64,000 bases of DNA from Xanthomonas sontii. GTDB taxonomy: Bacteria > Pseudomonadota > Gammaproteobacteria > Xanthomonadales > Xanthomonadaceae. The translations under genes were made by a program, and so were the position numbers. Below the pieces are notes generated by a model. That model was not told the origin of the DNA and ran no database searches. It saw nothing but the letters and a program-made list of their open reading frames with translations. Below, one piece after another: positions 18,297 to 34,763 of the stretch (its first letter is position 1; every line of letters begins with the position of its first letter). The stretch lies in assembly GCF_040529055.1 (NCBI RefSeq), contig NZ_CP132342.1, positions 4,276,001 to 4,340,000 on the forward strand, in the 5' to 3' direction.

Positions 18297-18387
18297 GACA
18301 GACGCTTCAGCGCGAGCGCCACCGCCTGCGCATCCGGATCGGCGCCCGCCGCGTATGTCCTAGTGTCATCCCACCGGAGCGCCGTGC

Positions 18388-19176
18388 ATGCCGACGTCGA
18401 CCGCCGCCTTCCCGTTCACCCGACCGCACCTGCCGCTGGCCCTGGCCCTCGGCGCCGCCGCCCTGGTCGCCGCCGCGCCTGCGCGGGCGATGCTGCACTA
18501 CGAGGGCATCGCCTATGCCGCCGACGGCAAACAGGTGCTGTACCGCGAAAGCCACTGGGTCCGCGAGGATGGCGCGCGCCTGGTGCTGTACCAGTGCACC
18601 GACGGCGCCGCGTTCGCGCGCAAGCGCGTGGACGACGGCAGCGCCGCGCCGGACTTCGAACTGGTCGATGCGCGCAGCGGCTACCGCGAGGGTGTGCGCC
18701 GCAGCGGCAGCGGGCGCGAGATGTTCAGTCAGGCCAAGGGTCAGGCCGAACGCCGCGCGCCGTTGCCCAAGAGCACCGAGGCGCAGGTGATCGACGCGGG
18801 TTTCGACGCCTACCTGCGCCAGCGCTGGGACAGCCTGGGCAGCGGCGGACCGCAGCGCATCGCCTTCGTGCTGCCCAGCGAACTGCGCACGCTCGACTTC
18901 CGCATCGCTCCCGGCCCGGCCGACGCCGAAGTGCAGCGCTACACCCTGAGCCTGGCCGCCTGGTACGGCACGCTGCTGCCCGACCTCAGCGTCGCCTACA
19001 CGCGCAAGGACCGGCGCCTGCTCGAATTCCGCGGCGTCGGCAACATCCGCGACGCGCGCGGCCGCTACCCGAGCGTGCGCATCGAATTTCCCGAACGCCT
19101 GCGCGGCCAGGCCGACGATGGCGCCTGGCAGCAGGCGCTGCAGCAACCCCTGGTCGCGCAATGCAGCGCGCGCTGA
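18388..19176 (+). CDS. exported protein of unknown function
   Basis: Protein of 262 residues with a signal peptide (LALALGAAALVAAAPARAM). The mature part is rich in charged residues and beta-prone segments (MLHYEGIAYAADGKQVLYRE, RLLEFRGVGNIRDARGRYPS). It is not recognised as a named family. GGAG lies eleven bases before ATG 18388 and a TAGTGT box is 22 bases upstream. It precedes the small membrane protein gene at 19265 and the ECF sigma gene. Codon use matches its neighbours, so it is almost certainly a real gene. Confidence 0.75.
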   Translation: MPTSTAAFPFTRPHLPLALALGAAALVAAAPARAMLHYEGIAYAADGKQVLYRESHWVREDGARLVLYQCTDGAAFARKRVDDGSAAPDFELVDARSGYREGVRRSGSGREMFSQAKGQAERRAPLPKSTEAQVIDAGFDAYLRQRWDSLGSGGPQRIAFVLPSELRTLDFRIAPGPADAEVQRYTLSLAAWYGTLLPDLSVAYTRKDRRLLEFRGVGNIRDARGRYPSVRIEFPERLRGQADDGAWQQALQQPLVAQCSAR

Positions 19177-19264
19177 GCCGCGCCGTCAGCGCATTCACGC
19201 CGGCCCGCGCCGCACCCGCTACAACCATGCCTGCGCATCGCCCGCGCATCGACGAGGACACCTC

Positions 19265-19636
19265 ATGGCCAAGGCCTACCTGTGGTTCAACGCCGCGCTG
19301 TACGCGCTTCTGGCCGTCTGGTGCACGCTGCTGCCGGCGCAGACCGCCGCAGCGGTGGGCTATGTCGGCCTGGACCGCTCCGGCCAGTCCGAATACCTGG
19401 TCATCTACGGCGGCCTGCAATTGGGCATGGCCTTCCTGTTCGGCTACTTCGCCCGCACCGGGCAGTTGCGCACCGGCCTGCTCCTGGCACTGGCGTTCTA
19501 CGTGCCCATCGTGCTCTACCGCAGCGCCAGCCTGCTGCGGCTGTGGCCGGTCGGCCCGACCACGACCGGCCTGGCCGCGTTCGAGATCGTCCTGCTGCTC
19601 ACCGCGTGCGTATTGTGGCGGCGCCAGCGCGCCTGA
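19265..19636 (+). CDS. small four-helix membrane protein (DUF4345-like)
   Basis: Inner-membrane protein of 123 residues with four predicted helices (LWFNAALYALLAVWCTLLPA, YGGLQLGMAFLFGYFA, LLLALAFYVPIVLYRSASLL, FEIVLLLTACVLWRR). The pattern GLDRSGQSEYLVIYGGLQLG resembles DUF4345. A GAGGA ribosome site precedes ATG 19265. It lies 58 bases before the sigma gene and could share its transcript. Function unknown. Confidence 0.75.
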   Translation: MAKAYLWFNAALYALLAVWCTLLPAQTAAAVGYVGLDRSGQSEYLVIYGGLQLGMAFLFGYFARTGQLRTGLLLALAFYVPIVLYRSASLLRLWPVGPTTTGLAAFEIVLLLTACVLWRRQRA

Positions 19637-19694
19637 GCGACGGGCGCGGCGAAAGCCTGTAGCATCGCGCCGACCTTCGCCACCGTCTCCCGGC

Positions 19695-20252
19695 ATGACC
19701 GAGTCGCCCGATCACGACGAAGCAGGACAATTGCTGGTGGCCACCGCCACCGGCGACAGCGCCGCATTCGAACGCCTGTACCGCACCACCTCCTCGCGCC
19801 TGTTCGGCGTGTGCCTGCGCATCGTGCCGCAGCGCGGCGAAGCCGAGGACGTGCTGCAGGAAGTGTTCTCCTCGGTCTGGCGCAAGGCGGCGCAGTTCGA
19901 CCCGCAGCGCGCGCGCGGCCTGACCTGGCTGACCATGATCGCCCGCAACAAGGCCATCGACCATTTGCGCGCACGCGCACCTGCGCGGCAGTCGGTGGCG
20001 CTGGACGACGCCGGTGAACTGCAGGACGAAGGCCGCGATCCGCTCGCCGACACCGAGTGGCGGGTGGCGGGTCGGCGCCTGGACGTGTGCATGGGCGAAC
20101 TGGAGCCGCCGCGCGGCGACTTGATCCGCACCGCGTTCTTCGAAGGCATCACCTACGAAGAACTGGCCCAGCGCAGCGGCACGCCGTTGGGCACGGTCAA
20201 GAGCTGGATCCGCCGCGGCCTGGCCAAACTGAAAGCGTGCCTGGAACGATGA
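19695..20252 (+). CDS. ECF RNA polymerase sigma factor
   Basis: Extracytoplasmic-function sigma factor of 185 residues. Region 2 runs from FERLYRTTSSRLFGVCLRIV to FDPQRARGLTWLTMIARNKA and includes the -10-recognition helix. Region 4 (ITYEELAQRSGTPLGTVKSW) recognises the -35. The downstream overlapping gene encodes its membrane anti-sigma factor, an RskA-like protein, so the pair resembles SigK/RskA-type systems. It sits directly upstream of the lipid-modification operon on the same strand, which suggests control of that operon; no target promoter is proven here. Confidence 0.93.
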   Translation: MTESPDHDEAGQLLVATATGDSAAFERLYRTTSSRLFGVCLRIVPQRGEAEDVLQEVFSSVWRKAAQFDPQRARGLTWLTMIARNKAIDHLRARAPARQSVALDDAGELQDEGRDPLADTEWRVAGRRLDVCMGELEPPRGDLIRTAFFEGITYEELAQRSGTPLGTVKSWIRRGLAKLKACLER

Positions 20253-21037
20253 ACGCCTCCGTGCCCGATCCACAGGAAACCCCGCCGCCGCGCGACGTGC
20301 TGGCCGGCGAGTACGTGCTCGGCGTGCTCGACGCGCAGGAGCGCCGCGCCGCCGAAGCACGCATCGACAGCGACCGCGAATTCGCCGCGGCCGTGCTGCA
20401 ATGGCAGCAGCACCTGATGCCGCTGGCCGACGAGATCGCCCCGGTGGCGGTGCCCGAGCGCGTGTGGGTGCGCATCCGCGCCTCGCTGGGCCTGGATGCG
20501 CCGGGGCCGCGCCCGCGCCCCGCCGCACCCGGGTTCTGGGACAGCGTGCGGACCTGGCGCTGGCTCAGCGCCGGCGGCTTCGCCACCGCCACGGCCTGCC
20601 TGCTGGCGCTGCTGCTGGCGCGTGCGCCGGTGCCGCCGCCGTCCGCGCAGCCGCCACCGGTCGCCACCACCACGCCCAAGCCCAGCGGCATCGCGATGAC
20701 CTCCACGCTGATGCAGGACGACGGCAAGCCCGGCTACGTGGCGCTGATGGACGCCGACAAGCGCAGCATCACCCTCACCCCGCTGGCCGGCGCCCGCGAC
20801 GCCGGCCGCGTGCCGGAACTGTGGCTGATCCCAGCCGACGGCAAGGCGCGCTCGATGGGCGTGTTCGACGAAGCCAAGGCGCGCGTGGCGCGCATTCCCG
20901 ATGCGCTGATGCCCATGCTCAGCGACGGCGCGGTGCTGGCGGTGACCATGGAACCGCCCGGCGGCGCGCCCGGCGGCGTCGCCACCGGTCCGGTCGTGGC
21001 CAAGGGTGGCATCAGCACGCTGCAGCTGGCGCCGTAG
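20249..21037 (+). CDS. RskA-type anti-sigma factor
   Basis: Membrane anti-sigma factor of 262 residues. The N-terminal cytoplasmic part (LAGEYVLGVLDAQERRAAEA) binds the sigma factor. A single helix (WLSAGGFATATACLLALLLA, about 103-122) leads to a periplasmic RskA domain (VPELWLIPADGKARSMGVFD). ATG 20249 overlaps the sigma stop by four bases, so the two are made together. Regulated release would need proteolysis of this protein. The last 24 bases, including the stop, are duplicated 210 bases downstream at 21224-21247. Confidence 0.92.
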   Translation: MNASVPDPQETPPPRDVLAGEYVLGVLDAQERRAAEARIDSDREFAAAVLQWQQHLMPLADEIAPVAVPERVWVRIRASLGLDAPGPRPRPAAPGFWDSVRTWRWLSAGGFATATACLLALLLARAPVPPPSAQPPPVATTTPKPSGIAMTSTLMQDDGKPGYVALMDADKRSITLTPLAGARDAGRVPELWLIPADGKARSMGVFDEAKARVARIPDALMPMLSDGAVLAVTMEPPGGAPGGVATGPVVAKGGISTLQLAP

Positions 21038-21420
21038 ACAACCCTTCTCCCATCGGGACCATGGATCCCCTTCTCCCGTCGGGAGAAGGTGCCCCGAAGG
21101 GGCGGATGAGGGTACGGGCGAAGCCTCGTACAGCGTCCGCTAGCGCAAGTTGGATACGCGAAGGCGTCGCTCCGCACCCTCACCCCAACCCCTCTCCCGC
21201 CGGGAGAGGGGCAATAACGCCTTAGCACGCCGCAGCTGGCGCCGTAGACAACCCCTTCTCCCACCGAGACCATGGATCCCCTTCTCCCGTCGGGAGAAGG
21301 TGCCCCGAAGGGGCGGATGAGGGTCCGGGCGAAGCCTCGTGGACCTGATTCCGCGAGGCGCTTCGCTCCGTACCCTCACCCCAACCCCTCTCCCGATGGG
21401 AGAGGGGCAGTGCACCACGC
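21014..21420. repeat. tandem duplication of the anti-sigma gene end plus repeat element
   Basis: A ~210-base unit occurs twice. Copy 1 (21014-21223) begins with the last 24 coding bases of the anti-sigma gene. Copy 2 (21224-21420) begins with the same 24 bases with one change (CTG to CCG). Each then has an arm CCTTCTCCCGTCGGGAGAAG, the segment GGTGCCCCGAAGGGGCGGAT, a variable middle, and a closing CCCTCACCCCAACCCCTCTC palindrome. No gene is present here. Confidence 0.9.
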
Positions 21421-21704
21421 ACCTTGTACGCGCCGCGGAGAGATCGGGCCGCGGTCAGGCTATGCCGCTCTCGTCTACAAGAACCGGGCGCGCATTCACC
21501 CGCCCACCACTCGTGCGCAGGCAACATCCCCGCCGCCATCGCGCATCCGCACGACAGCCAGATCTTCCGATTCGTGCGACGCCTGCGCTGCGCCGTCGTG
21601 GCCGCCATGCCGCGCCCGCAGCCGTGCAGGGGAAATGCGACGCGGGTGCATCCGTCTTCCGGTTTCGCCCGTATCGCTCCCAAGTCCCCCAATGAGACGC
21701 GCTT
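21421..21704. other. leader region of the lipid operon, no gene seen
   Basis: After the duplicated repeat, 284 bases precede the desaturase gene. I see no convincing small gene. The operon promoter should lie here. I could not pick out a clear sigma-70 or ECF promoter by eye. Confidence 0.4.
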
Positions 21705-22682
21705 GTGCCGAGTCCCGTTCCGGAACCCAGCCCTTCCACAACGCCACCTGCACCGCGTGGCCGCATCCTGCGCACCTTGCGGCGGTGGTTCGACACCAGT
21801 GCCGAGATCGAGCTGGATCCGGCGCGTGCCGACCGCATCGACTGGCTGCGTGCCGCGCCCTACATCGGCCTGCACCTGGCGTGCCTGGGCGTGTTCTGGG
21901 TCGGCGTGTCGTGGTTCGCCGTCGGCATGGCCGTGGCGATGTACGCCGTGCGCATGTTCGCGCTCACCGGCTTCTACCACCGCTATTTCGCGCACCGCGC
22001 GTTCAAGACCTCGCGCCCGGTGCAGTTCCTGTTCGCCGCGATCGGCGCCACCTGCGTGCAGCGCGGGCCGCTGTGGTGGGCCGCCCACCACCGCAACCAT
22101 CATCGCCATACCGATACCCCGGCCGATCCGCATTCGCCGCGCCAGCACGGCTTCTGGTGGAGCCACAGCGGCTGGTTCCTGACTCCGCGCGGCTTCCGCA
22201 CCGACTGGGAGGCGATCCCGGACCTGCGCCGCTTCCCCGAACTGCGCTTCCTCGACCGCTTCGACCTGCTGCTGCCGGTGCTGCTGGCGCTGGCGCTGTT
22301 CCTGCTCGGCGGGTGGCTGCAGCGGCACGTGCCGCAGCTCGGCACCGACGGCCCGCAGTTGCTGGTGTGGGGTTTCTTCGTCTCCACCGTGGCGCTGTTC
22401 CATGCCACCTTCACCATCAACTCGCTGGCGCACCGCTTCGGCAGCCGCCGCTTCGACACCCGCGACGACAGCCGCAACAACCTGTGGCTGGCGCTGCTGA
22501 CCTTCGGCGAAGGCTGGCACAACAACCACCATTTCTTCCCCGGCGCCGCGCGCCAGGGCTTCCGCTGGTGGGAGCTGGACCTGACCTGGTACGGCCTGAA
22601 GGCGCTGTCGTGGACCCGCGTGATCCGCGAGCTCAAGCCGGTGCCGGCCGGGCTGGTGCGCGCACAGGCGCGTGCCCGATGA
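21705..22682 (+). CDS. membrane acyl-CoA/acyl-lipid desaturase
   Basis: Integral-membrane di-iron fatty acid desaturase of 325 residues, predicted to introduce a double bond (delta-9 type) into acyl chains. The three histidine boxes are HRYFAH (about 87-92), HHRNHH and HNNHH (about 267-271). Hydrophobic spans flank them (YIGLHLACLGVFWVGVSWFA, LLLPVLLALALFLLGGW). It starts at GTG 21705. The stop overlaps the next gene's start (ATGA). As first gene of the operon it would supply unsaturated chains to the enzymes downstream. Confidence 0.9.
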   Translation: MPSPVPEPSPSTTPPAPRGRILRTLRRWFDTSAEIELDPARADRIDWLRAAPYIGLHLACLGVFWVGVSWFAVGMAVAMYAVRMFALTGFYHRYFAHRAFKTSRPVQFLFAAIGATCVQRGPLWWAAHHRNHHRHTDTPADPHSPRQHGFWWSHSGWFLTPRGFRTDWEAIPDLRRFPELRFLDRFDLLLPVLLALALFLLGGWLQRHVPQLGTDGPQLLVWGFFVSTVALFHATFTINSLAHRFGSRRFDTRDDSRNNLWLALLTFGEGWHNNHHFFPGAARQGFRWWELDLTWYGLKALSWTRVIRELKPVPAGLVRAQARAR

Positions 22683-23932
22683 GCCGGATCGCGGTGGTGG
22701 GCTCGGGGATCGCCGGCCTCGGCGCGGCGTGGCTGCTGTCGCAGCGCCACGAGGTGACGCTGTACGAGGCGGCCGACTATCTCGGCGGCCATACCCATAC
22801 CCATGCGATCGAACTGGACGGCGCGGAGTACGCGGTGGACAGCGGCTTCATCGTGTTCAATCCGGAGCACTACCCGCTGCTGAGCGCGTTGTTCGCGCGG
22901 CTGGGAGTCGAGTCGCAGCCGACCACGATGAGTTTCTCGGTACACGAGGAGCGCACCGGGCTGGAGTACAACGCCGGCACGCTCGATGGGCTGTTCTGTC
23001 AGCGCCGCAATCTGCTGTCGCCGCGCTTCTGGCGCATGCTGCGCGATCTGCGGCGGTTCTACCGTGAGGCGCCGCAGGTGCTGCACGACGCCACGCTGGC
23101 GCAGCTCACCCTCGGCGACTTCCTGCAGCGCCACCGGTACTCCGAGGTCTTTCGCGACGCGCACCTGGTGCCGATGGCCTCGGCGCTGTGGTCCTCGCCG
23201 TCGCGGCAGATCCTCGATTTCCCGATGCGCCAGCTGATCGGCTTCATGGCCAATCACCACATGCTGCAGGTCAGCGGCCGCCCGCAGTGGCGGGTGGTGC
23301 GCGGCGGCTCCAACAGCTACGTGCGTGCGCTGCGCAGCCGCTGGCGCGTGCGCGAGCGGCTGGGCACGCCGGTGCGCGCGCTGCAGCGCACGGCCCACGG
23401 CAGCGTCGCGATCGCCTGCGATGCCGACACCCAGCAATACGACCACGCAGTATTGGCCTGCCACGCCGACGACGCGCTGCGCCTGCTGACCGACCCCAGC
23501 GACGCGGAAACCGCGATCCTCGGCGCGATCGGCTACCAGGACAACGAGACCGTGCTGCACACCGATGCGCGCGTGCTGCCGCGCGACCGCCGCGCCTGGG
23601 CCGCCTGGAACGCGCATGTACCGGCGGATCCGGACGCGCCGTGCACGGTCAGCTACTGGATGAACGCGCTGCAGTCGCTGCAGGCGCCGCAGCCGTTCAT
23701 CGTCAGCCTCAACCGCACGGATGCGATCGATCCGGCCAAGGTGCTGCGACGCATGCGCTACCGGCATCCGCTGCAGACCCAGGCGTCGGTGGCGGCGCAG
23801 GCGCGCAAGGGCGAGATCCAGGGCCAGCGCAATACCTGGTTCGCCGGCGCCGGCTGGGGCTTCGGCTTCCACGAGGACGGCCTGCGCAGCGCGGTCGACG
23901 TCGCCGCCGCGCTGGGGGTACCCTGGTCATGA
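22679..23932 (+). CDS. FAD-dependent amine-oxidase-like oxidoreductase (UfaD-like)
   Basis: Flavoprotein of 417 residues with an N-terminal Rossmann FAD motif (VVGSGIAGLGAAWLL, then VTLYEAADYLGGHTHTH) and an amine-oxidase/phytoene-desaturase-like fold. In many proteobacteria this gene type sits next to DUF1365 and a Cfa-like methyltransferase. In Rhodobacter a protein of this kind (UfaD) desaturates methylated phospholipid acyl chains on the way to furan fatty acids. The C-terminal FAGAGWGFGFHEDGLRSAV closes the FAD site. It overlaps both neighbours by ATGA. Role here is inferred from family and context. Confidence 0.88.
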   Translation: MSRIAVVGSGIAGLGAAWLLSQRHEVTLYEAADYLGGHTHTHAIELDGAEYAVDSGFIVFNPEHYPLLSALFARLGVESQPTTMSFSVHEERTGLEYNAGTLDGLFCQRRNLLSPRFWRMLRDLRRFYREAPQVLHDATLAQLTLGDFLQRHRYSEVFRDAHLVPMASALWSSPSRQILDFPMRQLIGFMANHHMLQVSGRPQWRVVRGGSNSYVRALRSRWRVRERLGTPVRALQRTAHGSVAIACDADTQQYDHAVLACHADDALRLLTDPSDAETAILGAIGYQDNETVLHTDARVLPRDRRAWAAWNAHVPADPDAPCTVSYWMNALQSLQAPQPFIVSLNRTDAIDPAKVLRRMRYRHPLQTQASVAAQARKGEIQGQRNTWFAGAGWGFGFHEDGLRSAVDVAAALGVPWS

Positions 23933-24798
23933 CGCTGATGCGCCGTGCTGCCGTGCCCGCCCCGCCGACTGGCGCCGTCTCGACAACGTCGGCGGCGGCG
24001 GGCACGACCCTGCATGGCCTGCACAGCGCGGTATACACCGGCTGGGTGCGGCATCGCCGTTACGCGCCGAAAGCGCTGGCGTTCCGCTATCCGCTGTTCC
24101 TGCTGTACCTGGACCTGGACGAACTGGAGCAGGTATTCGCGCGGCGCTGGCTATGGTCGGTGAACCGGCGCAACCTGGCCGAGTTCCGCCGCAGCGACTA
24201 CCTGGGCGACCCCGCGCAACCGCTGGACGAAGCGGTACGCGACCGCGTGCAGCAGCACACCGGCGAGCGTCCGCTGGGCCCGGTGCGCATGCTCACCCAC
24301 CTGCGCTACTTCGGCCACTGCTTCAATCCGGTCACGTTCTACTACTGCCACGACGCGCAGCAGCGCCTGCACAGCATCGTCGCCGAGATCACCAACACGC
24401 CGTGGCGGCAGCGCCACGCCTACGTGCTGCCGATGGCCGAGGCGCGCAGTCACGGCGTCACGCACGCCTGGCGCTTCGCCAAGCGCTTCCACGTCTCGCC
24501 GTTCATGGCGATGGCGCACACCTATGCTTGGCGCTTCAGCGAACCCGGCGCGCAACTGCGCGTGCACATGGACGTGCTCGATCCCACGCCGGCGGCGACG
24601 CGGCGACGCTTCGACGCCACCCTGGTGCTCGAGCGCCGCGCGCTCGACGGTGCCAGCCTGGCGCAGGCACTGCTGCGCTATCCGGCGATGACCCTGCAGG
24701 TCATGGCCAAGATCCACTGGCAGGCGCTGCGGCTGTGGCTGCGCGGCAACCCGGTGCACGACCACCCCGACCACTCCCTTCCGCGAGAACGCCGATGA
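23929..24798 (+). CDS. DUF1365 family protein
   Basis: Protein of 289 residues with the DUF1365 hallmarks: HSAVYTGWVRHRRYAPKALA, FRYPLFLLYLDLDEL, HLRYFGHCFNPVTFYYC and FHVSPFMAM. The conserved His/Asn/Cys-rich centre may be catalytic. DUF1365 genes almost always neighbour an FAD oxidoreductase and a Cfa-like methyltransferase, as here, so a step in modified fatty acid synthesis is likely; an oxygen-inserting role like UfaO is one option. It overlaps both neighbours by ATGA. No function is proven for this group. Confidence 0.88.
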   Translation: MTLMRRAAVPAPPTGAVSTTSAAAGTTLHGLHSAVYTGWVRHRRYAPKALAFRYPLFLLYLDLDELEQVFARRWLWSVNRRNLAEFRRSDYLGDPAQPLDEAVRDRVQQHTGERPLGPVRMLTHLRYFGHCFNPVTFYYCHDAQQRLHSIVAEITNTPWRQRHAYVLPMAEARSHGVTHAWRFAKRFHVSPFMAMAHTYAWRFSEPGAQLRVHMDVLDPTPAATRRRFDATLVLERRALDGASLAQALLRYPAMTLQVMAKIHWQALRLWLRGNPVHDHPDHSLPRERR

Positions 24799-26108
24799 AC
24801 GCTCCGCACGCGCCCTCTTCCGCCGCCGCGCTGGCCCCTGCCGCACCGCCGCTGCGCGGGCTCGACCGCCTGCTGCGGCAACGCCTGCTCGCCACGCTGG
24901 ATGGCCTGCGCGAGGGCCAGTTGCGCATCGAGGAAGCCGGCACGCTGACCACGCTGGGCGATTCCACCGCGGGCGCCGACACGCTGCAGGCGCATCTGCG
25001 CATCCATGACCCGCGCTTCTACCGCCAGGCCGCGCTCAACGGCAGCGTCGGCGTCGGCGAGGCGTACATGGACGGGCTGTGGGATTGCGACGACCTGGTC
25101 GCACTGGTGCGCCTGCTGGTGCGCAATCGCGACCGCCTGGATGCGATGGAGACCGGCCTGGCCCGGCTCGGCGGCCTGGCGATGCGCGGCCTGCACGCGT
25201 TCGCGCGCAATACCCGCGCCGGCAGCCGCCGCAACATCGCCGCGCACTACGACCTGGGCAATCCGTTGTTCGAGCTGTTCCTGGATCGCAACCTGATGTA
25301 CTCCTCGGCGATCTTCCGCGACGCCGACGCCGCCTTGGGCGAAGCCGCGCTGGAACGCGCCGCCGAACGCAAGCTGCAGCGCATCTGCGCCAAGCTCGAT
25401 CTGCAGCCGCACCATCACCTGGTCGAGATCGGCACCGGCTGGGGCGGCTTCGCGCTGCATGCGGCCAAGCACCACGGCTGCCGCGTCACCACCACCACCA
25501 TCTCGCGCGAGCAGTACGAACTGGCGCGGCAGCGCATCGCGGCCGCCGGGCTGTCGGACCGGGTCGAGGTGTTGCTGCGCGACTATCGCGATCTCGACGG
25601 TCGCTACGATCGCCTGGTCTCGATCGAGATGATCGAGGCGATCGGCCATCAATACCTGGATACCTACTTCGGCAAGGTCGGCAGCCTGCTCAAGGACGAC
25701 GGCCAGGCGCTGATCCAGGCCATCACCATCGAGGACCACCGCTACGCGCAGGCGCTGAAGTCGGTGGACTTCATCAAGCGCCATATCTTCCCGGGCAGCT
25801 TCATCCCCTCGGTGGCGGCGATGACCGGTGCGATCGGCCGCGCCAGCGACCTGCGTCTGTTCAACCTGGAAGACATCGGCCCCAGCTACGCGCTGACCCT
25901 GCGCGCCTGGCGCGAGCGCTTCATGGCCAGGCTGCCGCAGGTGCGCGCGCTCGGCTACGACGAACGCTTCATCCGCATGTGGGAGTTCTATCTGGCCTAC
26001 TGCGAAGGCGGTTTCCTGGAGCGCTCGATCGGCGACGTGCACCTGTGGCTGAGCAAGCCGCGCGCACGGCCGGCGCAGTTCGCGCCGGTGCTGGCGGGCG
26101 ACGCATGA
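24795..26108 (+). CDS. Cfa-like SAM methyltransferase, UfaM/TmsB-like subgroup
   Basis: SAM-dependent methyltransferase of 437 residues acting on phospholipid acyl chains. The SAM site is LVEIGTGWGGFALHAA. AHYDLGNPLFELFLDRNLMY and the helical C-terminus are as in cyclopropane fatty acid synthase. Some E. coli Cfa bicarbonate-site residues differ: YSCAYW is YSSAIF (Cys to Ser), and LLHTIG is LIQAIT (His to Gln). Glu in MIEAIG and Tyr in PSYALTL remain. These changes, from memory, match UfaA1/TmsB/UfaM enzymes that methylate rather than cyclopropanate. It overlaps both neighbours by ATGA. Confidence 0.9.
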   Translation: MNAPHAPSSAAALAPAAPPLRGLDRLLRQRLLATLDGLREGQLRIEEAGTLTTLGDSTAGADTLQAHLRIHDPRFYRQAALNGSVGVGEAYMDGLWDCDDLVALVRLLVRNRDRLDAMETGLARLGGLAMRGLHAFARNTRAGSRRNIAAHYDLGNPLFELFLDRNLMYSSAIFRDADAALGEAALERAAERKLQRICAKLDLQPHHHLVEIGTGWGGFALHAAKHHGCRVTTTTISREQYELARQRIAAAGLSDRVEVLLRDYRDLDGRYDRLVSIEMIEAIGHQYLDTYFGKVGSLLKDDGQALIQAITIEDHRYAQALKSVDFIKRHIFPGSFIPSVAAMTGAIGRASDLRLFNLEDIGPSYALTLRAWRERFMARLPQVRALGYDERFIRMWEFYLAYCEGGFLERSIGDVHLWLSKPRARPAQFAPVLAGDA

Positions 26109-26650
26109 GCAACCTGATCAACTACCTCGCCCTGCAGGGGCTGTGGCTGGCCGCCGTCGTCGGCGCCGCGCACGGCTTGGCCTGGTCCGGCCCGGCGGCG
26201 CTGGCGCTGTTCGCGCTGTACCAGTTGCAGTCGCGCCGCCGCGCGCGTGGCGACGCCGCGCTGATCGCCCTGGCGTTGCCGCTGGGTGCCGGTGTCGATG
26301 CGGCCATGCGCGCCGGCGACTGGGTGCGCTACGCCGCCGCGCCGCCGGCGCCGTGGCCGCCGCTGTGGATCCTGGCGCTGTGGGCCGGCTTCGCGCTGAC
26401 CTTCCAGCACTCGCTGGCCTGGGTGATGCGCCATCCCTGGCGCGCGGCGCTGTTCGGCGCCATTGGCGGCCCGCTGGGCTATGTGCTGGCCGCGCGCGGC
26501 TGGCAGGCGGTGACGCTGGTGGCGCCCAAGTCGCAGGCGCTGCTGGCGCTGGCTGTGGGCTGGGCCGCGGCGCTGACCTTGCTGAGCCTGGCGACGCGCC
26601 GCCTGATGGTCGCCACGCCGGCGCTGCCGGCCACCGGAGCCGTGCGATGA
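26105..26650 (+). CDS. DUF2878 family membrane protein
   Basis: Inner-membrane protein of 181 residues with about five hydrophobic helices and the DUF2878 pattern: NYLALQGLWLAAVVGAA, ALIALALPLGAGVDAAMRAG, and FALTFQHSLAWVMRHPWRAA. DUF2878 genes commonly sit in operons with Cfa-like methyltransferases and DUF1295 or DUF3833 genes. A scaffold or lipid-binding role is possible, but none is known. Its ATG overlaps the upstream stop and its stop overlaps the next ATG. Confidence 0.85.
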   Translation: MSNLINYLALQGLWLAAVVGAAHGLAWSGPAALALFALYQLQSRRRARGDAALIALALPLGAGVDAAMRAGDWVRYAAAPPAPWPPLWILALWAGFALTFQHSLAWVMRHPWRAALFGAIGGPLGYVLAARGWQAVTLVAPKSQALLALAVGWAAALTLLSLATRRLMVATPALPATGAVR

Positions 26651-27429
26651 ACGCCTGGCCGCTGCTGCATGTGGGCGTGTTCACCGTGCTGGTCATGCTC
26701 GCCGGCTGGGCCTGGCAGCGGCGCACCCGCAATGCCGGCGTGGTCGATGTGCTGTGGTCGGCCTGCATGGCGCTGACCGCGGTGTACTGCGCCTGGCGCG
26801 CCGATGGCGCGCTGCTGCCGCGGGTGCTGACCGCGGTGCTGGGTGGGCTGTGGGGCGCGCGCCTGGCCTGGCATCTGGGCATACGCGTGTTCGGCGATGC
26901 GCACGAAGACGGCCGCTATCGTGCCCTGCGTGAGCACTGGCACGGCGACCAGCGCAAGTTCCTGGCGTTCTTCCTCGGCCAGGCGCTGGTGGTGCTGGCG
27001 TTCGCGGTGCCGCTGTCGGTGGCCGCGCACAATCCGCAGCCGCAGTGGAGCGTGTGGACCACGTTGGCGGTCGCGACCTGGCTGATCGCGGTCGGCGGGG
27101 AAAGCCTGGCCGACCGGCAACTGGCCGCGTTCCGCACCGACCCGGCGAACAAGGGCAAGACCTGCCGCCAAGGCCTGTGGCGCTATTCGCGGCATCCGAA
27201 CTACTTCTTCGAATTCGTGCACTGGTTCGCCTACGTGTTCCTGGCAGTGGGCAGCGGCGCGCTGTGGGTCGGCGTGGCCGCGCTGGGCCCGTTGCTGATG
27301 TTCGCCTTCCTCTATCGCGTCACCGGCATTCCCTATACCGAACAACAAGCGCTGCGCTCGCGCGGCCGCGATTACGCCGACTACCAGCGCAGCACCAGCG
27401 CCTTCTTCCCCATGCCGCCGCGGCATTGA
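26647..27429 (+). CDS. DUF1295 membrane protein (steroid 5-alpha-reductase fold)
   Basis: Polytopic membrane protein of 260 residues. The C-terminal signature LWRYSRHPNYFFEFVHWFAY and the final GRDYADYQRSTSAFFPM are typical of DUF1295, related to steroid 5-alpha-reductases and isoprenylcysteine methyltransferases. Related enzymes use NADPH to reduce a conjugated double bond. In this operon a reductase acting on a modified unsaturated chain would fit, but that is inference. ATGA overlap upstream; 20 bases to the next gene. Confidence 0.87.
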   Translation: MNAWPLLHVGVFTVLVMLAGWAWQRRTRNAGVVDVLWSACMALTAVYCAWRADGALLPRVLTAVLGGLWGARLAWHLGIRVFGDAHEDGRYRALREHWHGDQRKFLAFFLGQALVVLAFAVPLSVAAHNPQPQWSVWTTLAVATWLIAVGGESLADRQLAAFRTDPANKGKTCRQGLWRYSRHPNYFFEFVHWFAYVFLAVGSGALWVGVAALGPLLMFAFLYRVTGIPYTEQQALRSRGRDYADYQRSTSAFFPMPPRH

Positions 27430-27449
27430 GCCGCGCGAGGAGATCCGCC

Positions 27450-28526
27450 ATGTCCAGTACCTTCGCCACCTCTTCCCCGCCTGCCGCGCCGGCCGAGCCG
27501 CTGGCCACGCGCATGGCCGAATCCGGCCTATTGCCCGACGCCATGCTGCGCGCGGCGATGCGCCGGTTGTGCGCGCAGCGCTTGCGCGACGAGCGCGCCG
27601 GCGGCGCCGACGCGGCCTGGGAGCGCCAGCGCCTGCTGATCGAATCGCTGCGCGAGAGCGCCATCGCGATCGAGACCGACGCAGCCAACCGCCAGCATTA
27701 CGAAGTGCCGCCGCGCTTCTTCGAGCTGTGCCTGGGCAAGCGCCTGAAGTACAGCAGCTGCTACTGGGATGCGACCACGCCCGACCTGGACGCGGCCGAA
27801 GAACGCATGCTGCAGCTGTACGCCGAACGCGCACAGTTGCGCGACCGCCAGCGCATCCTCGAACTGGGCTGCGGCTGGGGCTCGCTGACGCTGTGGATGG
27901 CCGAGCAGTTCCCCGGCGCACGCATCACCGCGGTCTCCAACTCGCGGCCGCAGCGCGAGCACATCGAAGCGCAATGCCGCGCGCGCGGACTGGGCAACGT
28001 CAAGGTGATCACCCACGACGCCAACACCCTGACCCTGCCGACCGAAAGCTACGACCGTGTGGTCTCGATCGAGATGTTCGAGCACATGCGCAACTACCGC
28101 GAACTGCTCAAGCGGGTCAGCCACTGGCTGGTGCCGGGCGGCCGGCTGTTCGTGCACATCTTTTGCCATCGCGACTTGGCCTACCCGTTCGAGGTGCAGG
28201 GCGAGGACAACTGGATGGGCCGGCACTTCTTCACCGGCGGCCTGATGCCGGCGGCCGACACCCTGCTGCAGTTCCAGGACGACCTGGCGATCGAACGCCG
28301 CTGGCTTCTGTCCGGCCAGCATTACGAGAAGACCGCCAACGCCTGGCTGCACAACCAGGACCGCCACCGCGACACGCTGATGCCGGTGCTGCAGGCCACC
28401 TACGGCGCCGACGCCAAGATCTGGTGGCAACGCTGGCGCATGTTCTGGATGGCCTGCGCGGAACTGTTCGGCTACGAACAGGGCCAGCAGTGGGGCGTGG
28501 CGCATTACCGGTTCGTCAGGCGCTGA
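27450..28526 (+). CDS. Cfa-family methyltransferase resembling coclaurine N-methyltransferase
   Basis: SAM-dependent methyltransferase of 358 residues. The SAM site is ILELGCGWGSLTLWMA. The rest follows plant coclaurine N-methyltransferase closely in pattern: YSSCYWDATTPDLDAAEERM, SIEMFEHMRNY, LFVHIFCHRDLAYPFE, and RHFFTGGLMPAADTLLQFQD. Bacterial members are annotated as cyclopropane synthase family. A GAGGAG ribosome site precedes ATG 27450. It is the last gene of the operon. Target may be a lipid chain or a small amine; the paired DUF1295 gene argues for a lipid. No close link to the first methyltransferase beyond the fold. Confidence 0.88.
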   Translation: MSSTFATSSPPAAPAEPLATRMAESGLLPDAMLRAAMRRLCAQRLRDERAGGADAAWERQRLLIESLRESAIAIETDAANRQHYEVPPRFFELCLGKRLKYSSCYWDATTPDLDAAEERMLQLYAERAQLRDRQRILELGCGWGSLTLWMAEQFPGARITAVSNSRPQREHIEAQCRARGLGNVKVITHDANTLTLPTESYDRVVSIEMFEHMRNYRELLKRVSHWLVPGGRLFVHIFCHRDLAYPFEVQGEDNWMGRHFFTGGLMPAADTLLQFQDDLAIERRWLLSGQHYEKTANAWLHNQDRHRDTLMPVLQATYGADAKIWWQRWRMFWMACAELFGYEQGQQWGVAHYRFVRR

Positions 28527-30274: not shown

Positions 30275-32839
30275 ATGACCGACGCCGCGCCCTCTACTGC
30301 CGCACCCACGCCCGGCTGGCGCCGTGCGCTGCCGGTGCTGGCCAGCCTGGCGATCCTGGCCCTGGCGCTGCACGCGCTGGCCACGGAGTTCAGCACCCAC
30401 GGCTACAGTGCGATCCGTCACGCCTTCAACCAGCTGAGCCTCAGCCAGATCGTGCTGACCCTGCTGCTGGGCCTGAGCAGCTACGCCTGCCTGATCGGCT
30501 TCGATGCCGTCGGCCTGCGCCGCAGCGGGCGCAAGCTGCACCCGATGCGGATCAGCATCACCGCGTTCCTGGCGCATGCGGTCGGGCAGACCCTGGGCTT
30601 CGCCGCATTGACCGGCGGCGCGGTGCGCCTGCGCGGTTACGGCCGGGTCGGGCTGAGCCTGGCCGAGATCGGCCAGGTGGTGCTGATGAGCACGCTCGGC
30701 TTCGTGTTCGGCGCGTGGCTGCTGCTGGCGCTGGCCCTGACCATGGAACCGGCCGCGGCGGCGCTGGCGCTGCCGGTCGGCGCGACTGCGGTGCGCGCGA
30801 TCGGCATCGCGTTGCTGGTCGGCTTCGCCACGATGCTGCTGCTGGCCGGCCGCGACGGCCGCACCCTGCGCTGGCGCAGCCACGAACTGTGGCTGCCGGA
30901 CCGGCGCACCACCCTGGGCGTGACCGCGCTGAGCGTGGTCGAACTGGGGCTGGCCAGTGCCGCGTTCTACGTGCTGCTGCCCAACGAATCGGGCATCGAG
31001 TACATCGGCTTCGTCGGCCTGTACCTGGTCGCGGTGGTGGCGGGCCTGGTCTCGACCGTGCCGGCCGGCCTGGGCGTGTTCGAGTGGAGCCTGCTCAAGC
31101 TGCTGCCCGGCGTGGCGCCGGCGGCGGTGCTGGCGGCGGCGCTGATCTACCGCATCACCTACTACGTGGTGCCGCTGCTGCTGTCGGTGCTGATGGCGTC
31201 GCTGTCCGGCCTGCGCCGGCCGCTGGCCGCCAGTGCCGGCGGCGTGCGCGTGGCCTGGCGCACGCTGCGCCCGTGGCTGCCGCAGATCATCGCCCTGGCG
31301 GTGTTCGCGGTCGGCGCGGCGCTGGTCATCGACGGCACCCTGCCCACGCCCAAGCGCCGCCAGGACATGGCGCCGCTGTCGATCATGGAAACCTCGCACC
31401 TGCTGGCCAGCCTCGGCGGCGTGGTGCTGCTGCTGATCGGCCAGGGCCTGCAGCGGCGCAGCCATGCCGCCTGGGTGCTGGCGATCGGCATCTGCGTGCT
31501 GCTGCCGCTGCCGGCCTGGCTGCGCGGCGGCCACGTCTCGGTGGCGCTGTCCTCGCTGGTGGTGGCGGTCGGCCTGTGGGGCGCGCGCCGCGAGTTCTAC
31601 CGCGAGGGCGCGCTGCTCGACGAGGCCTGGTCGTGGCCGTGGCTGCGCAACCTCGGCCTGGTGCTGATCGCCACGATCTGGCTGCTGTTCTTCGTCTACA
31701 GCCACGTCGAATACCAGAACGAGCTGTGGTGGGAATTCGCCACCTCGGCCAACGCGCCGCGTGCGCTGCGCGCGGTGCTGCTGGTCAGCGTGGCGGTGGT
31801 GGTATTCGGGCTGGCGCGGCTGCTGCACAGCACGCGCTCGCCATTGCCGCCGGCCGATGGCGCGCAACTGGACGCGTTGGCGCCGGTGCTGGCCGAGGCC
31901 ACCGACACCCAGGCCTGCCTGGTGCTGACCGGCGACAAGGCGCTGCTGCAGGCCGAGGACGGCCCCGGCTTCGTGATGATGCAGCGCTACGGCGGCTCGC
32001 TGGTGGCGATGGGCGACCCGGTCGGCGCGCCGGAAGTGGCCCGCGCGCTGATCTGGCGCTTCCGCGAGGAAGCCGACCGCATGGGCCTGCGCCCGGTGTT
32101 CTACCAGGTCGGCGAGCAGCACTGGCAGACCTACCTGGACCTGGGCCTGACCCTGGTCAAGCTCGGCGAGGAAGCGATGGTGTCGCTGGAGGGCTTCCAC
32201 CTGGAAGGCCGCGACCGCGCCGACCTGCGCCAGGCCTGGAACCGCGGCAAGCGCAGCGGGCTGAGCTTCCGCATCGTCGAGACCGACGCGGTGGACGCGC
32301 TGATGCCGGTGCTGGCCGAGGTCTCGCAGCAGTGGCTGGAAGACAAGGCCGGTGCCGAGAAGGGCTTCTCGCTGGGCAGCTTCGACCCGGCCTACCTGCG
32401 CCGCTTCCCGATCGCGGTGGTGGAGTTCGAGGGCAAGGTCGTGGCCTTCGCCAACCTGTGGCAGGCCCCGGCCGGTCACGAGCTGTCGGTGGACCTGATG
32501 CGGCACATCGCCGATGCGCCGAAGGGCACGATGGACTTCCTGTTCATCGAGCTGTTCCTGTGGGGCCGCGACCAGGGCTACAAGCGCTTCTCGCTGGGCA
32601 TGGCGCCGCTGTCGGGCTTGGCCCAGCACCGCCTGGCCGGCCGCTGGAACCGCTTCGGCAACCTGATCGTGCGCCACGGCGAACGCTTCTACGGCTTCAC
32701 CGGCCTGCGCCGCTTCAAGTCCAAGTTCGCCCCCGCCTGGCGCACCCGCTACCTCGCCGCCCCCGGCGGCATGCACCTGCCCGCCGCCCTGCTGGACGTG
32801 ACCCGACTGATCTCGCTGGATCCGCGCAAGCCGGAGTGA
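30275..32839 (+). CDS. mprF: phosphatidylglycerol lysyltransferase/flippase MprF
   Basis: Bifunctional inner-membrane protein of 854 residues. The N-terminal half (about 20-530) has many helices and the flippase domain (SYACLIGFDAVGLRR, VSTVPAGLGVFEWSLLKLLP). The C-terminal half is a DUF2156 aminoacyl-transferase domain (GDPVGAPEVARALIWRFREE, GRWNRFGNLIVRHGERFYGF). It transfers lysine (or another amino acid) from tRNA to phosphatidylglycerol, lowering surface charge and raising resistance to cationic peptides. Its last 78 bases are duplicated at 33024-33101. An AcvB/VirJ-like gene, whose relatives degrade lysyl-PG, converges from downstream. Confidence 0.93.
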   Translation: MTDAAPSTAAPTPGWRRALPVLASLAILALALHALATEFSTHGYSAIRHAFNQLSLSQIVLTLLLGLSSYACLIGFDAVGLRRSGRKLHPMRISITAFLAHAVGQTLGFAALTGGAVRLRGYGRVGLSLAEIGQVVLMSTLGFVFGAWLLLALALTMEPAAAALALPVGATAVRAIGIALLVGFATMLLLAGRDGRTLRWRSHELWLPDRRTTLGVTALSVVELGLASAAFYVLLPNESGIEYIGFVGLYLVAVVAGLVSTVPAGLGVFEWSLLKLLPGVAPAAVLAAALIYRITYYVVPLLLSVLMASLSGLRRPLAASAGGVRVAWRTLRPWLPQIIALAVFAVGAALVIDGTLPTPKRRQDMAPLSIMETSHLLASLGGVVLLLIGQGLQRRSHAAWVLAIGICVLLPLPAWLRGGHVSVALSSLVVAVGLWGARREFYREGALLDEAWSWPWLRNLGLVLIATIWLLFFVYSHVEYQNELWWEFATSANAPRALRAVLLVSVAVVVFGLARLLHSTRSPLPPADGAQLDALAPVLAEATDTQACLVLTGDKALLQAEDGPGFVMMQRYGGSLVAMGDPVGAPEVARALIWRFREEADRMGLRPVFYQVGEQHWQTYLDLGLTLVKLGEEAMVSLEGFHLEGRDRADLRQAWNRGKRSGLSFRIVETDAVDALMPVLAEVSQQWLEDKAGAEKGFSLGSFDPAYLRRFPIAVVEFEGKVVAFANLWQAPAGHELSVDLMRHIADAPKGTMDFLFIELFLWGRDQGYKRFSLGMAPLSGLAQHRLAGRWNRFGNLIVRHGERFYGFTGLRRFKSKFAPAWRTRYLAAPGGMHLPAALLDVTRLISLDPRKPE

Positions 32840-33268
32840 GGCCGGGATTGGGGAGTCGGGATTGGGGATTGGCCTGGTCGCCTCGTTGCTGGGGCATTGC
32901 GAGGCTTCGCGCCGTACCCTCATCCGCCCCTTAGGGGCACCTTCTCCCGGTGGGAGAAGGAACAGCAAAGCCCCTCTCCCCCCGGGAGAGGGGTTGGGGT
33001 GAGGGTACGACCGCCAGGGAGCGCCCGGCGGCATGCACCTGCCCGCCGCCTGGCTGGACGTGACCCGGTTGATTTCGCTGGATCCACGCAAGCCGGAGTG
33101 AGGCCGGGATTGGGGATTAGCCTGGTCGCCTCGTTGCTGGGGCATTGCGAGGCTTCGCGCCGCACCCTCATCCGCCCCTTCGGGGCACCTTCTCCCGAGG
33201 GGAGAAGGAACAGCAAAGCCCCTCTCCCCCCCGGGAGAGGGGTTGGGGTGAGGGTACGGCGGCCGACG
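32762..33268. repeat. tandem duplication of the mprF 3' end plus repeat element
   Basis: Copy 1 runs from 32762 (inside mprF) to about 33023, copy 2 from 33024 to about 33268. Each has 78 bases of mprF end with stop codon (32837-32839 and 33099-33101), a heptamer array (GGGATTGGGGATT), the segment CTCGTTGCTGGGGCATTGCG, and the CCTCATCCGCCCC...CACCTTCTCCC and GGGTTGGGGTGAGGG palindromes. The coding parts differ at six bases; four changes are synonymous single substitutions and two fall in one codon (Leu to Trp). Confidence 0.9.
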
Positions 33269-33338
33269 ACGCGAGCGCGCAAGCCCGCACCCACGACCAG
33301 CCCACCAATCCCCAATCCCGCCTCCCCAATCCCGGCTC
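33269..33338. repeat. right-hand heptamer array before acvB-like gene
   Basis: AATCCCCAATCCCGCCTCCCC and AATCCCGGC (about 33307-33337) are the complement of the arrays at 32842-32870 and 33103-33118, so they bracket the whole duplicated region as inverted ends. Confidence 0.65.
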
Positions 33339-34763
33339 CTACTGAATCCGCTGCAGAATCTGCTTGGCCAGCGTCGCGTAATCGCCCTGGAAATGATGGT
33401 CGCCGGGCAGCTTGACCAGTTGCACCGCGCCCTTGGGCAGGTCCGGGCACAGCGCGTCGTCGTCGTCCTCGCCATAGATGCACAGGGTCTGCGCCGGCGG
33501 CATCTTCGCCACTTCCGGGGCGATCGGCAGGCCGTCGTCGCCGGAGCTGATCCAGTTGGACACGTGGAACTCGTAGTCGGCGGTCTTGCCGACCGACAGC
33601 AAGGCGGTGAGCTGCACCTGGTCGCGCATCGCTTCCGGCAACTGGTTGTAGGCCGCCGGCAGCACGTCGGCGCCCTGCGAGAAGCCGATCAGCACCACCC
33701 GCCCGCGTTGCCACAGGTGGCTGTAGTGGCGGTAGATGCGGTCCAGGTCGGTGGCGAAGCCCTGCGGCGTGCGCTCGCTCCAGAAGTAGCGCAGCGAATC
33801 CACGCCCACCACCGGGATGCCGGCCTTGGCCAGGGCGCCGGCGACCTGCTGGTCGAGTCCGGCCCAGCCGCCGTCGCCGGAGACGAAGATCGCGAACACG
33901 TTGCCGTTGTCGGCATCACCCGCGCCCGCGGCGGCAGGCACTTCGACCACCGGCAGCCCGGCCAGGTCGGCCGGGGTCGGCGGCAGGCTGACGCCGGGCC
34001 GGTCGCCCAGCGAACGCACCGCCGCACGCAGCCCCGGCAGCGCATCGCCGCTGGCGCTGCGGCGGAACTGCCGCGCCTGCGCCACCTTCTGCAGGAACGC
34101 GTCGCTCTGCTGGGTGCAACGGTCGCGGCGGGTCTTGGCATCGAGCGCCGCCAGCCACGGCACCGGCAGCGCAGTCGCCTGCAACGCACGCGCCGGCGCG
34201 GTGATGCCGGCGCCGCAGATCTGGTCGTCGAGCACCTGCACCGGGCAGAAATCCTCGGTCAGCAGGCCCGCCAGCAGATGCTTGGGCGCCTGCGCAGCGA
34301 CCGCATAGGCCAGCGCGGCGCCGTCGCCATCGCCCACCAGCAACGGCAGGTGGTAGGTCGGCACGTGGAAATAGGCCTGCACGTAGCGCGAGAAATTCTC
34401 CACGTCGCCGGCGGAGAAGCCGCAGGTGCCGTCGATCTTGGCCAGCACCGCCTGCAGGTGCGCACTGTCGATCACCGCGACCATGGCGCCGTCGTCGCGC
34501 AGCGCCTCGATCTGGCGCATGCGCTCGGCGTCGGCGTGCTTGCCGCCGGCGAACCACAGCACCACGCGCTGCGCGTTGCCCTTGGGCAACAGCACCGGCA
34601 CCTGCTCGAAGCGGCCGTGGCTGAGCTTTTCCGGCGCCGTGGCCGGTGCGCCGGCACGCGGCGCGGCGGTGGCCGCAGCGCCCGGTGCTGCGCCGGCGAC
34701 GCCGGCCGCGAGCAGTCCGCCCAATGCACATCCCCACATCCAACCGCCACGCTTCTGCATCAT
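33339..34763 (-). CDS. AcvB/VirJ family virulence factor, probable lysyl-PG hydrolase
   Basis: Exported alpha/beta-hydrolase-like protein of 474 residues with a signal peptide (WGCALGGLLAAGVAGA). It has an N-terminal VirJ-like domain and a C-terminal repeat of it, with FVSGDGGWAGLDQQVAGALA, the nucleophile elbow GFSQGAD (about 368-374) and GDHHFQGDY near the end. In Agrobacterium, AcvB is linked to the lysyl-PG synthase gene lpiA and degrades lysyl-PG in the periplasm. Here it faces mprF convergently. AGGA precedes ATG 34763; ATG 34760 is an alternative start. Activity is inferred. Confidence 0.88.
   Translation of the reverse strand: MMQKRGGWMWGCALGGLLAAGVAGAAPGAAATAAPRAGAPATAPEKLSHGRFEQVPVLLPKGNAQRVVLWFAGGKHADAERMRQIEALRDDGAMVAVIDSAHLQAVLAKIDGTCGFSAGDVENFSRYVQAYFHVPTYHLPLLVGDGDGAALAYAVAAQAPKHLLAGLLTEDFCPVQVLDDQICGAGITAPARALQATALPVPWLAALDAKTRRDRCTQQSDAFLQKVAQARQFRRSASGDALPGLRAAVRSLGDRPGVSLPPTPADLAGLPVVEVPAAAGAGDADNGNVFAIFVSGDGGWAGLDQQVAGALAKAGIPVVGVDSLRYFWSERTPQGFATDLDRIYRHYSHLWQRGRVVLIGFSQGADVLPAAYNQLPEAMRDQVQLTALLSVGKTADYEFHVSNWISSGDDGLPIAPEVAKMPPAQTLCIYGEDDDDALCPDLPKGAVQLVKLPGDHHFQGDYATLAKQILQRIQ

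What the first reader, a model, noticed from the sequence alone, without database searches (positions are those of the whole stretch)
19695..28526. Sigma-linked lipid operon with two Cfa-family methyltransferases, DUF1365, DUF2878 and DUF1295
An ECF sigma/RskA-type anti-sigma pair is followed on the same strand by desaturase, FAD amine-oxidase-like enzyme, DUF1365, Cfa-like enzyme, DUF2878, DUF1295 and a second Cfa-family enzyme. Five ATGA overlaps (22679, 23929, 24795, 26105, 26647) chain six of them. Known relatives: FAD enzyme, DUF1365 and Cfa-like genes occur together in bacteria making furan or methyl-branched fatty acids. Inference: the operon makes an unsaturated chain, methylates it on phospholipid, oxidises it and perhaps reduces or methylates it again, under envelope or oxidative stress control. 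The combination with its own desaturase, a DUF1295 reductase and a second methyltransferase could give a lipid not yet described in this group.
Basis: partly seen in the sequence, partly recalled or inferred. Interest (0 to 1): 0.8.

Follow-up and report, generated by a model that had tools for sequence, protein, structure and literature searches.

The report
Stress-controlled dimethyl furan-fatty-acid operon (predicted)
A bacterium carries, in one stress-switched gene block, what looks like the full set of enzymes for making antioxidant furan fats in its membrane, and related bacteria run the same block with a different stress sensor on the same kind of switch.

Summary
The operon is real and its coordinates are right. 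It is the UfaD-UfaO-UfaM furan fatty acid (FuFA) pathway followed by FufM, which makes dimethyl FuFA. The "second Cfa" is no CFA synthase: it belongs to the coclaurine-N-methyltransferase family and is 48-49% identical to the genes taken here as fufM in named Rhodopseudomonas genomes. DUF1295 (sterol-reductase fold) often travels with fufM even far from ufaDOM. The desaturase was seen only in this order (60 of 60 loci fetched inside, 0 of 30 outside). A promoter motif, [TC]GCATC[CT]-N16-CGTA, lies before the desaturase (21647) and before the regulator unit (18329). Before the desaturase it stands in 23 of 23 relatives with this RskA-type pair, 14 of 15 with an RpoE/ChrR-type pair instead, and 3 of 22 with neither next door. 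So regulators were exchanged while the promoter stayed. msrP carries the motif in 7 of 7 RskA-type genomes examined. A cluster of the same order in Stenotrophomonas maltophilia is sigma/ChrR-controlled by experiment; that paper names no furan. No lipid has been measured here. Verdict: new variant of a known pathway; enzyme identities likely, product, desaturase substrate and sensed signal untested.

The parts
18329..18355 (+). Promoter copy 1, CGCATCC-N16-CGTA, before the regulator unit
   Evidence: window scan; a second + strand copy further upstream than the desaturase one in 19 of 23 RskA-type loci
18388..19176 (+). Secreted/periplasmic-looking protein (N-terminal signal judged by eye), no Pfam or NCBIfam match; by position the counterpart of a gene weakly similar to one inside the ufa operon of other Gammaproteobacteria (L136)
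   Evidence: tblastn matches of the L136 query, 23-33%, in many of the order's loci, 31% in L099 of the same genus; the window itself was not in that search; no family
19265..19636 (+). DUF4345-like membrane protein (below Pfam cut-off)
   Evidence: 22.2 bits against cut-off 26.5
19695..20252 (+). ECF sigma factor; NCBIfam PRK12534 349.9 bits (cut-off 267), then PRK12514 179.8, then the SigK model PRK09646 137.5 (both below their cut-offs)
20249..21037 (+). RskA_C-type anti-sigma factor, ATGA overlap with sigma
21042..21409 (.). Two copies each of an 88-nt (97%) and a 50-nt (92%) repeat in the gap between anti-sigma and desaturase
21647..21673 (+). Promoter copy 2, TGCATCC-N16-CGTA, 31 nt before the desaturase start codon
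21705..22682 (+). Membrane fatty acyl desaturase (like stearoyl-CoA desaturase)
   Evidence: PF00487 9.5e-25; PDB 4ymk 9e-25
22679..23932 (+). UfaD homologue, FAD amine-oxidase-like desaturase
23929..24798 (+). UfaO homologue, DUF1365
24795..26108 (+). UfaM homologue with motif SIEMIEAIG
26105..26650 (+). DUF2878 membrane protein, role unknown
26647..27429 (+). DUF1295 membrane protein, sterol/steroid-reductase fold, companion of fufM
27450..28526 (+). FufM homologue (CNMT family), motif SIEMFEHMRNY

Best explanation
The block 18329-28526 is a two-promoter ECF regulon for making dimethyl furan fatty acids on membrane phospholipid. The sigma factor, held by the membrane-type RskA-like anti-sigma, is released by an unknown (probably oxidative, envelope-side) signal. 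It transcribes its own unit from 18329 and the lipid operon from 21647. The desaturase supplies or adds a cis double bond; UfaM methylates that unsaturated chain (methyl plus shifted trans double bond); UfaD adds a second double bond; UfaO inserts oxygen from O2 to close the furan; FufM adds the second ring methyl. The product scavenges reactive oxygen in the membrane while msrP, with the same promoter motif, repairs oxidised methionine in envelope proteins (MsrP's role recalled). Shown here: homology, gene order, conservation of the motif, the motif before msrP. Inferred from the Rhodobacter/Rhodopseudomonas enzymes: each catalytic step. Inferred only: the substrate of the desaturase, roles of DUF2878 and DUF1295, the signal, and that this sigma reads this promoter.
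For: [quoted passage not shown] sphaeroides and R. palustris (PMC7380195: abstract, passages, sections 8-10). In 5 of 6 named Rhodopseudomonas genomes searched, ufaD-ufaO-ufaM in that order surround a UfaM 40-41% identical to the window's (ufaD is cut by the locus end). All 6 hold a CNMT-like gene whose local match to the window's UfaM is 27-28% (22-24% over the whole alignment for the three compared), in line with the 26% reported for FufM against R. sphaeroides UfaM. The window's last protein is 47.9-49.2% identical to three of these. PMC10940516 (passages) gives FufM 37.87% identity to Arabidopsis AT4G33110. CNMT-like genes (over 280 bits) occur in 19 of 299 genomes of the phylum draw, 18 of them also with DUF1365, which 94 of 299 have (one search scored up to 6 candidates a genome). 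Own genome: UfaM and FufM are the two full-length CMAS-family matches; one partial match over the cut-off, two under it. Promoter motif: 23/23, 14/15 and 3/22 of RskA, ChrR and neither; Markov control mean 0.007 of 23 in 300 rounds. msrP motif in 7 of 7 RskA-type genomes looked at (NCBIfam MsrP 8.4e-143). The like-ordered S. maltophilia cluster is up 165-697-fold without ChrR, RNA-seq done once, some genes checked by qRT-PCR (PMC11832516 section 3.6).
Against: No furan fatty acid is shown for this group: the held library gave 2 papers for furan fatty acid with Xanthomonas, both on other subjects by title, and 0 with Stenotrophomonas. The S. maltophilia authors report superoxide, not singlet-oxygen, tolerance, so the FuFA/singlet-oxygen story of R. 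sphaeroides may not carry over. Solved relatives of the FufM homologue are alkaloid N-methyltransferases, so family alone does not fix the substrate. In 22 of 60 loci no sigma pair lies in the fetched stretch and 19 of these lack the motif, so this control is not universal. Of five strict motif hits in the own genome one is the operon, one msrP, three unexplained. In eight relatives the strict pattern had 36 hits against 3 for the reversed control. The two ChrR-type genomes gave no msrP among the 8 of 10 hits that became loci.
Confidence: 0.75

Rival explanations
1. The operon makes cyclopropane or simple methyl-branched fatty acids with two CFA synthases, as the S. maltophilia paper suggests, and the FAD and DUF1365 proteins do something else.
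For: PMC11832516 annotates both as CFA synthases; both match PF02353.
Against: The first carries EMIEAIG like the UfaM proteins compared, whereas E. coli-type CFA synthase 6bqc and the third Rhodopseudomonas gene (L274) carry GMFEHVG. The second fits the CNMT family. UfaD and UfaO homologues lie directly next to the first.
Confidence: 0.1
2. The pathway stops at the monomethyl furan; the FufM homologue methylates another substrate (an amine head group or another lipid).
For: Its solved relatives are alkaloid N-methyltransferases; two genomes (G063, G152) have it without a DUF1365 match.
Against: 48-49% identity to the Rhodopseudomonas genes taken as fufM; the next class of matches in the family search is at most 35%. 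fufM stands behind the operon in 60 of 60 loci of the order.
Confidence: 0.12
3. The sigma pair next door does not control the operon; the motif belongs to another ECF factor and the neighbourhood is incidental.
For: No pair in the fetched stretch in 22 of 60 loci; repeats separate the units in the window.
Against: Where no pair is seen the motif is mostly missing (3 of 22 have it); where either pair is seen it is nearly always present (37 of 38).
Confidence: 0.1

Closest known systems
S. maltophilia smlt2375-smlt2367 cluster with rpoEc-chrR-chrA (PMC11832516, sections 3.6 and 4 read, further passages seen)
   Same: Gene order by annotation: periplasmic protein, acyl-CoA desaturase, FAD oxidoreductase, hypothetical, Cfa-like, two inner-membrane proteins, Cfa-like; ECF-controlled; oxidative stress phenotype.
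   Different: ChrR-type regulator, divergent; a lipocalin gene ends the cluster; product not identified there ('furan' occurs 0 times). The gene-by-gene match rests on annotation and order; I did not fetch its sequence.
R. sphaeroides RSP1091-1087 plus RSP2144 (UfaD, UfaO, UfaM) under RpoE-ChrR (PMC7380195)
   Same: UfaD, UfaO and UfaM homologues; ECF control.
   Different: UfaM lies elsewhere. In the unnamed look-alike loci L153 and L155 the further operon genes look like a transporter, a DUF3833-like protein and a short-chain dehydrogenase (names judged by eye); no DUF1295, DUF2878, desaturase or FufM match there.
R. palustris RPA2571-2569 (ufaD, ufaO, ufaM) and RPA0924 (fufM)
   Same: All four enzymes; DUF1295 immediately before the fufM homologue in 6 of 6 Rhodopseudomonas genomes examined.
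   Different: fufM is unlinked there; no desaturase or RskA-pair match in the six 10-13 kb fufM loci.
M. tuberculosis SigK-RskA
   Same: ECF sigma with RskA_C anti-sigma; the SigK model is the third-best match.
   Different: SigK model below its cut-off; different regulon; the SigK promoter sequence was not checked here (not in the passages of PMC7509140 seen).

Membership tests
UfaM-UfaD-UfaO furan fatty acid pathway | Homologues of all three enzymes in one cluster, in the order of the proven R. palustris operon | tested here: met
UfaM-UfaD-UfaO furan fatty acid pathway | Production of 11Me-12t-18:1, the diene and 9M5-FuFA | not testable with these tools
   needs lipid analysis
UfaM | EM[IL]EA[IV]G motif in place of the GMFEHVG of CFA synthases (motif derived here from few sequences) | tested here: met
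CFA synthase (second methyltransferase) | Best match and length of a CFA synthase, GMFEHVG motif | tested here: not met
   CNMT family, SIEMFEHMRNY, 358 aa
FufM | Groups with the Rhodopseudomonas genes taken as fufM, apart from UfaM and CFA synthase | tested here: met
   tree (the split beside the midpoint root carries 0.925 on the fufM side and 1.0 on the other; no plant N-methyltransferase was in the tree) and 48-49% identity
FufM | Methylates 9M5-FuFA | not testable with these tools
   needs an enzyme assay
SigK-RskA type ECF pair | RskA_C domain above cut-off beside an ECF sigma | tested here: met
   (75.6 bits, cut-off 29.4)
SigK-RskA type ECF pair | SigK model (NF007228) above cut-off | tested here: not met
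   137.5 bits, cut-off 226, so not filed as SigK itself
RpoE-ChrR pair | ChrR cupin anti-sigma (PF12973) | tested here: not met
   none in the window's anti-sigma; no match in the own genome
DUF1295 as sterol/steroid reductase relative | Shared fold | tested here: met
   [not shown]

The most novel reading that the evidence does not exclude
The operon encodes a renewable membrane antioxidant. Reactive oxygen opens the dimethyl furan to an ene-dione (chemistry recalled); the DUF1295 protein, with a fold of enone-reducing steroid and sterol reductases and linked to fufM in several classes of Pseudomonadota, reduces it to the saturated 1,4-diketone, which can close again to the furan. A second new reading: the order-specific desaturase acts on iso-branched chains, which this group is recalled to be rich in, giving iso-branched dimethyl furan acids.
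Probability: 0.12. Interest if true: 0.85.

Novelty: new variant of a known kind. Interest (0 to 1): 0.6.

Why it matters
It gives a name and a test to a strongly induced lipid cluster whose product was not identified in the paper that found it in a relative, shows the dimethyl-furan step inside one operon with the rest of the pathway, supplies a partner gene (DUF1295) for FufM, and points to a natural exchange of two unlike stress sensors on one conserved promoter, so that sensor and output can be studied apart.

Tried and rejected

Limits of the counts. The 60 loci are 53 of the 61 other family genomes with DUF1365 (not fetched: G079, G061, G042, G112, G049, G059, G086, G014), 2 of the order and 5 more of the genus; the window is not among them. 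The 30 outside loci are 30 of the 89 genomes outside the order with DUF1365, chosen by score and for having fufM, not at random. The genus loci are close relatives, so the 23 RskA loci are not independent. 'RskA', 'ChrR' and 'none' mean a tblastn match inside the fetched stretch (8.6-19 kb); in L114 the ChrR pair lies behind fufM. The motif was first seen by eye in the RskA loci and then counted. On a tree of 64 concatenated sets the label changes 9 times against a mean of 28.1, lowest 24, in 200 shuffles, so exchanges are few; some nodes that set their number are weakly supported.

Rows set aside: L104 and L317 (both genome G063, fufM without ufaO) were left out of the 60. G332 has a partial CNMT-like match and was not counted among the 19. 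In some searches the stretch labelled DUF4345 was read in the wrong frame (from 19260); one search uses the right one (19265). The fufM query began two codons early (27444). One input was a meaningless 20-residue stretch.
Full report
What is there. The window lies at 4276001-4340000 of a 5.02 Mb single-contig genome. From 18388 to 28526, all on the + strand, stand: a secreted-looking protein without Pfam match; a weak DUF4345 protein; an ECF sigma factor; an RskA_C anti-sigma; a membrane desaturase; an FAD enzyme; DUF1365; a Cfa-family enzyme; DUF2878; DUF1295; and a second methyltransferase.

What the enzymes are. Lemke and others showed that UfaM (RSP2144), UfaD (RSP1091, FAD enzyme) and UfaO (RSP1090, DUF1365) make the monomethyl furan acid 9M5 on phospholipid, and that FufM (RPA0924) makes the dimethyl acid 9D5 (PMC7380195: abstract, passages and sections 8, 9 and 10 seen). 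The window has ufaD, ufaO and ufaM in the R. palustris order. In 5 of 6 named Rhodopseudomonas genomes the same order surrounds a UfaM 40-41% identical to the window's; in the sixth, a metagenome bin, no such gene was found. All 6 hold a CNMT-like gene with a 27-28% local match to the window's UfaM, and 4 of 6 a further Cfa-family gene (three at 37-40%, one partial match at 33-34%). The paper gives 26% (RPA0924) and 38% (RPA3082) against the R. sphaeroides UfaM. The window's last protein is 47.9-49.2% identical to three of the CNMT-like ones and groups with them. That these named CNMT-like genes are fufM rests on this match and on the reported 37.87% identity of FufM to Arabidopsis AT4G33110 (PMC10940516 passages); the FufM sequence of strain CGA009 itself was not fetched. 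PDB matches place the window protein with coclaurine N-methyltransferase. The window's UfaM carries EMIEAIG; E. coli-type CFA synthase 6bqc and the third Rhodopseudomonas gene L274 carry GMFEHVG. The own genome has no full-length CFA-family match other than these two.

Regulation. In the 60 loci of the order, the regulator in the fetched stretch is an RskA-type pair in 23, a ChrR-type pair in 15 and none in 22; outside, ChrR in 13 of 30 and RskA in none. The start of the motif [TC]GCATC[CT]-N16-CGTA lies 18-153 nt before the desaturase match in 23 of 23, 14 of 15 and 3 of 22; a first-order Markov control gave a mean of 0.007 of 23. A second + strand copy further upstream stands in 19 of 23 RskA loci, and a reverse copy by the divergent sigma gene in 9 of 9 divergent ChrR loci. 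The motif was seen by eye in the RskA loci before it was counted, so the RskA count is not independent of its discovery; the ChrR and 'none' counts are. PF12973, the ChrR cupin, has no match in the own genome or in the four same-genus genomes of that draw. The strict pattern hits the own genome five times (reversed control 0): the desaturase, msrP and three unexplained. msrP has it 48-76 nt before its start in 7 of 7 RskA-type genomes looked at. That the sigma factor reads the motif is inferred from this, not shown.

Closest work. The S. maltophilia cluster smlt2375-2367 matches by annotation and order, rises 165-697-fold without ChrR in one RNA-seq run and contributes to menadione (superoxide) tolerance (PMC11832516, sections 3.6 and 4 read). 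The paper calls both methyltransferases CFA synthases and does not mention furans. So such an operon and its ECF control in a relative are in print. The product assignment, the FufM identity in this order, the regulator exchange and the msrP link did not show in the listings, which search only the held open library.

Chemistry. By formula (own reckoning) the diene C19H34O2 plus O2 gives the furan acid C19H32O3 plus water, so UfaO need not draw on an outside reductant. The paper found that none had to be added, but its authors suspect one in the extract used. If UfaM acts on 16:1 delta9 instead of 18:1 delta11, the furan acids would be of the 7-carbon series rather than the 9-carbon one (own reckoning); both chain lengths are among those listed as common (PMC10558370 passages).

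Spread. DUF1365 is in 62 of 119 genomes of the family draw, 94 of 299 of the phylum draw and 18 of 20 of the genus. The genus is inferred from memory of such sequences to be Xanthomonas or near it; no tool named it.

Noticed in passing
window 30275-32839 (+) and 33339-34763 (-): A phosphatidylglycerol lysyltransferase (MprF-type) gene and a VirJ-family gene follow the furan operon, a second lipid-modifying gene nearby.
   Followed up: partly
window 21042-21409 and about 32900-33400: Repeat family with CCTTCTCCC...GGGAGAAGG inverted arms; similar text near 33 kb by eye.
   Followed up: partly
L323, G000:C1:3034609-3034635: msrP carries the same promoter motif as the lipid operon in seven genomes.
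   Followed up: yes
L326, L343, L345, L332: The same strict motif recurs about 270-330 nt before a gene that looks like succinate dehydrogenase cytochrome b (by eye) in four genomes; could be regulation or a shared coding stretch.
   Followed up: no
L104 (G063) and L147 (G152): FufM homologue in genomes without a DUF1365 match; either relics or another use of FufM.
   Followed up: no
[not shown]
   Followed up: partly
L293: DUF1295 match split over two adjoining pieces, possibly a frameshift.
   Followed up: no
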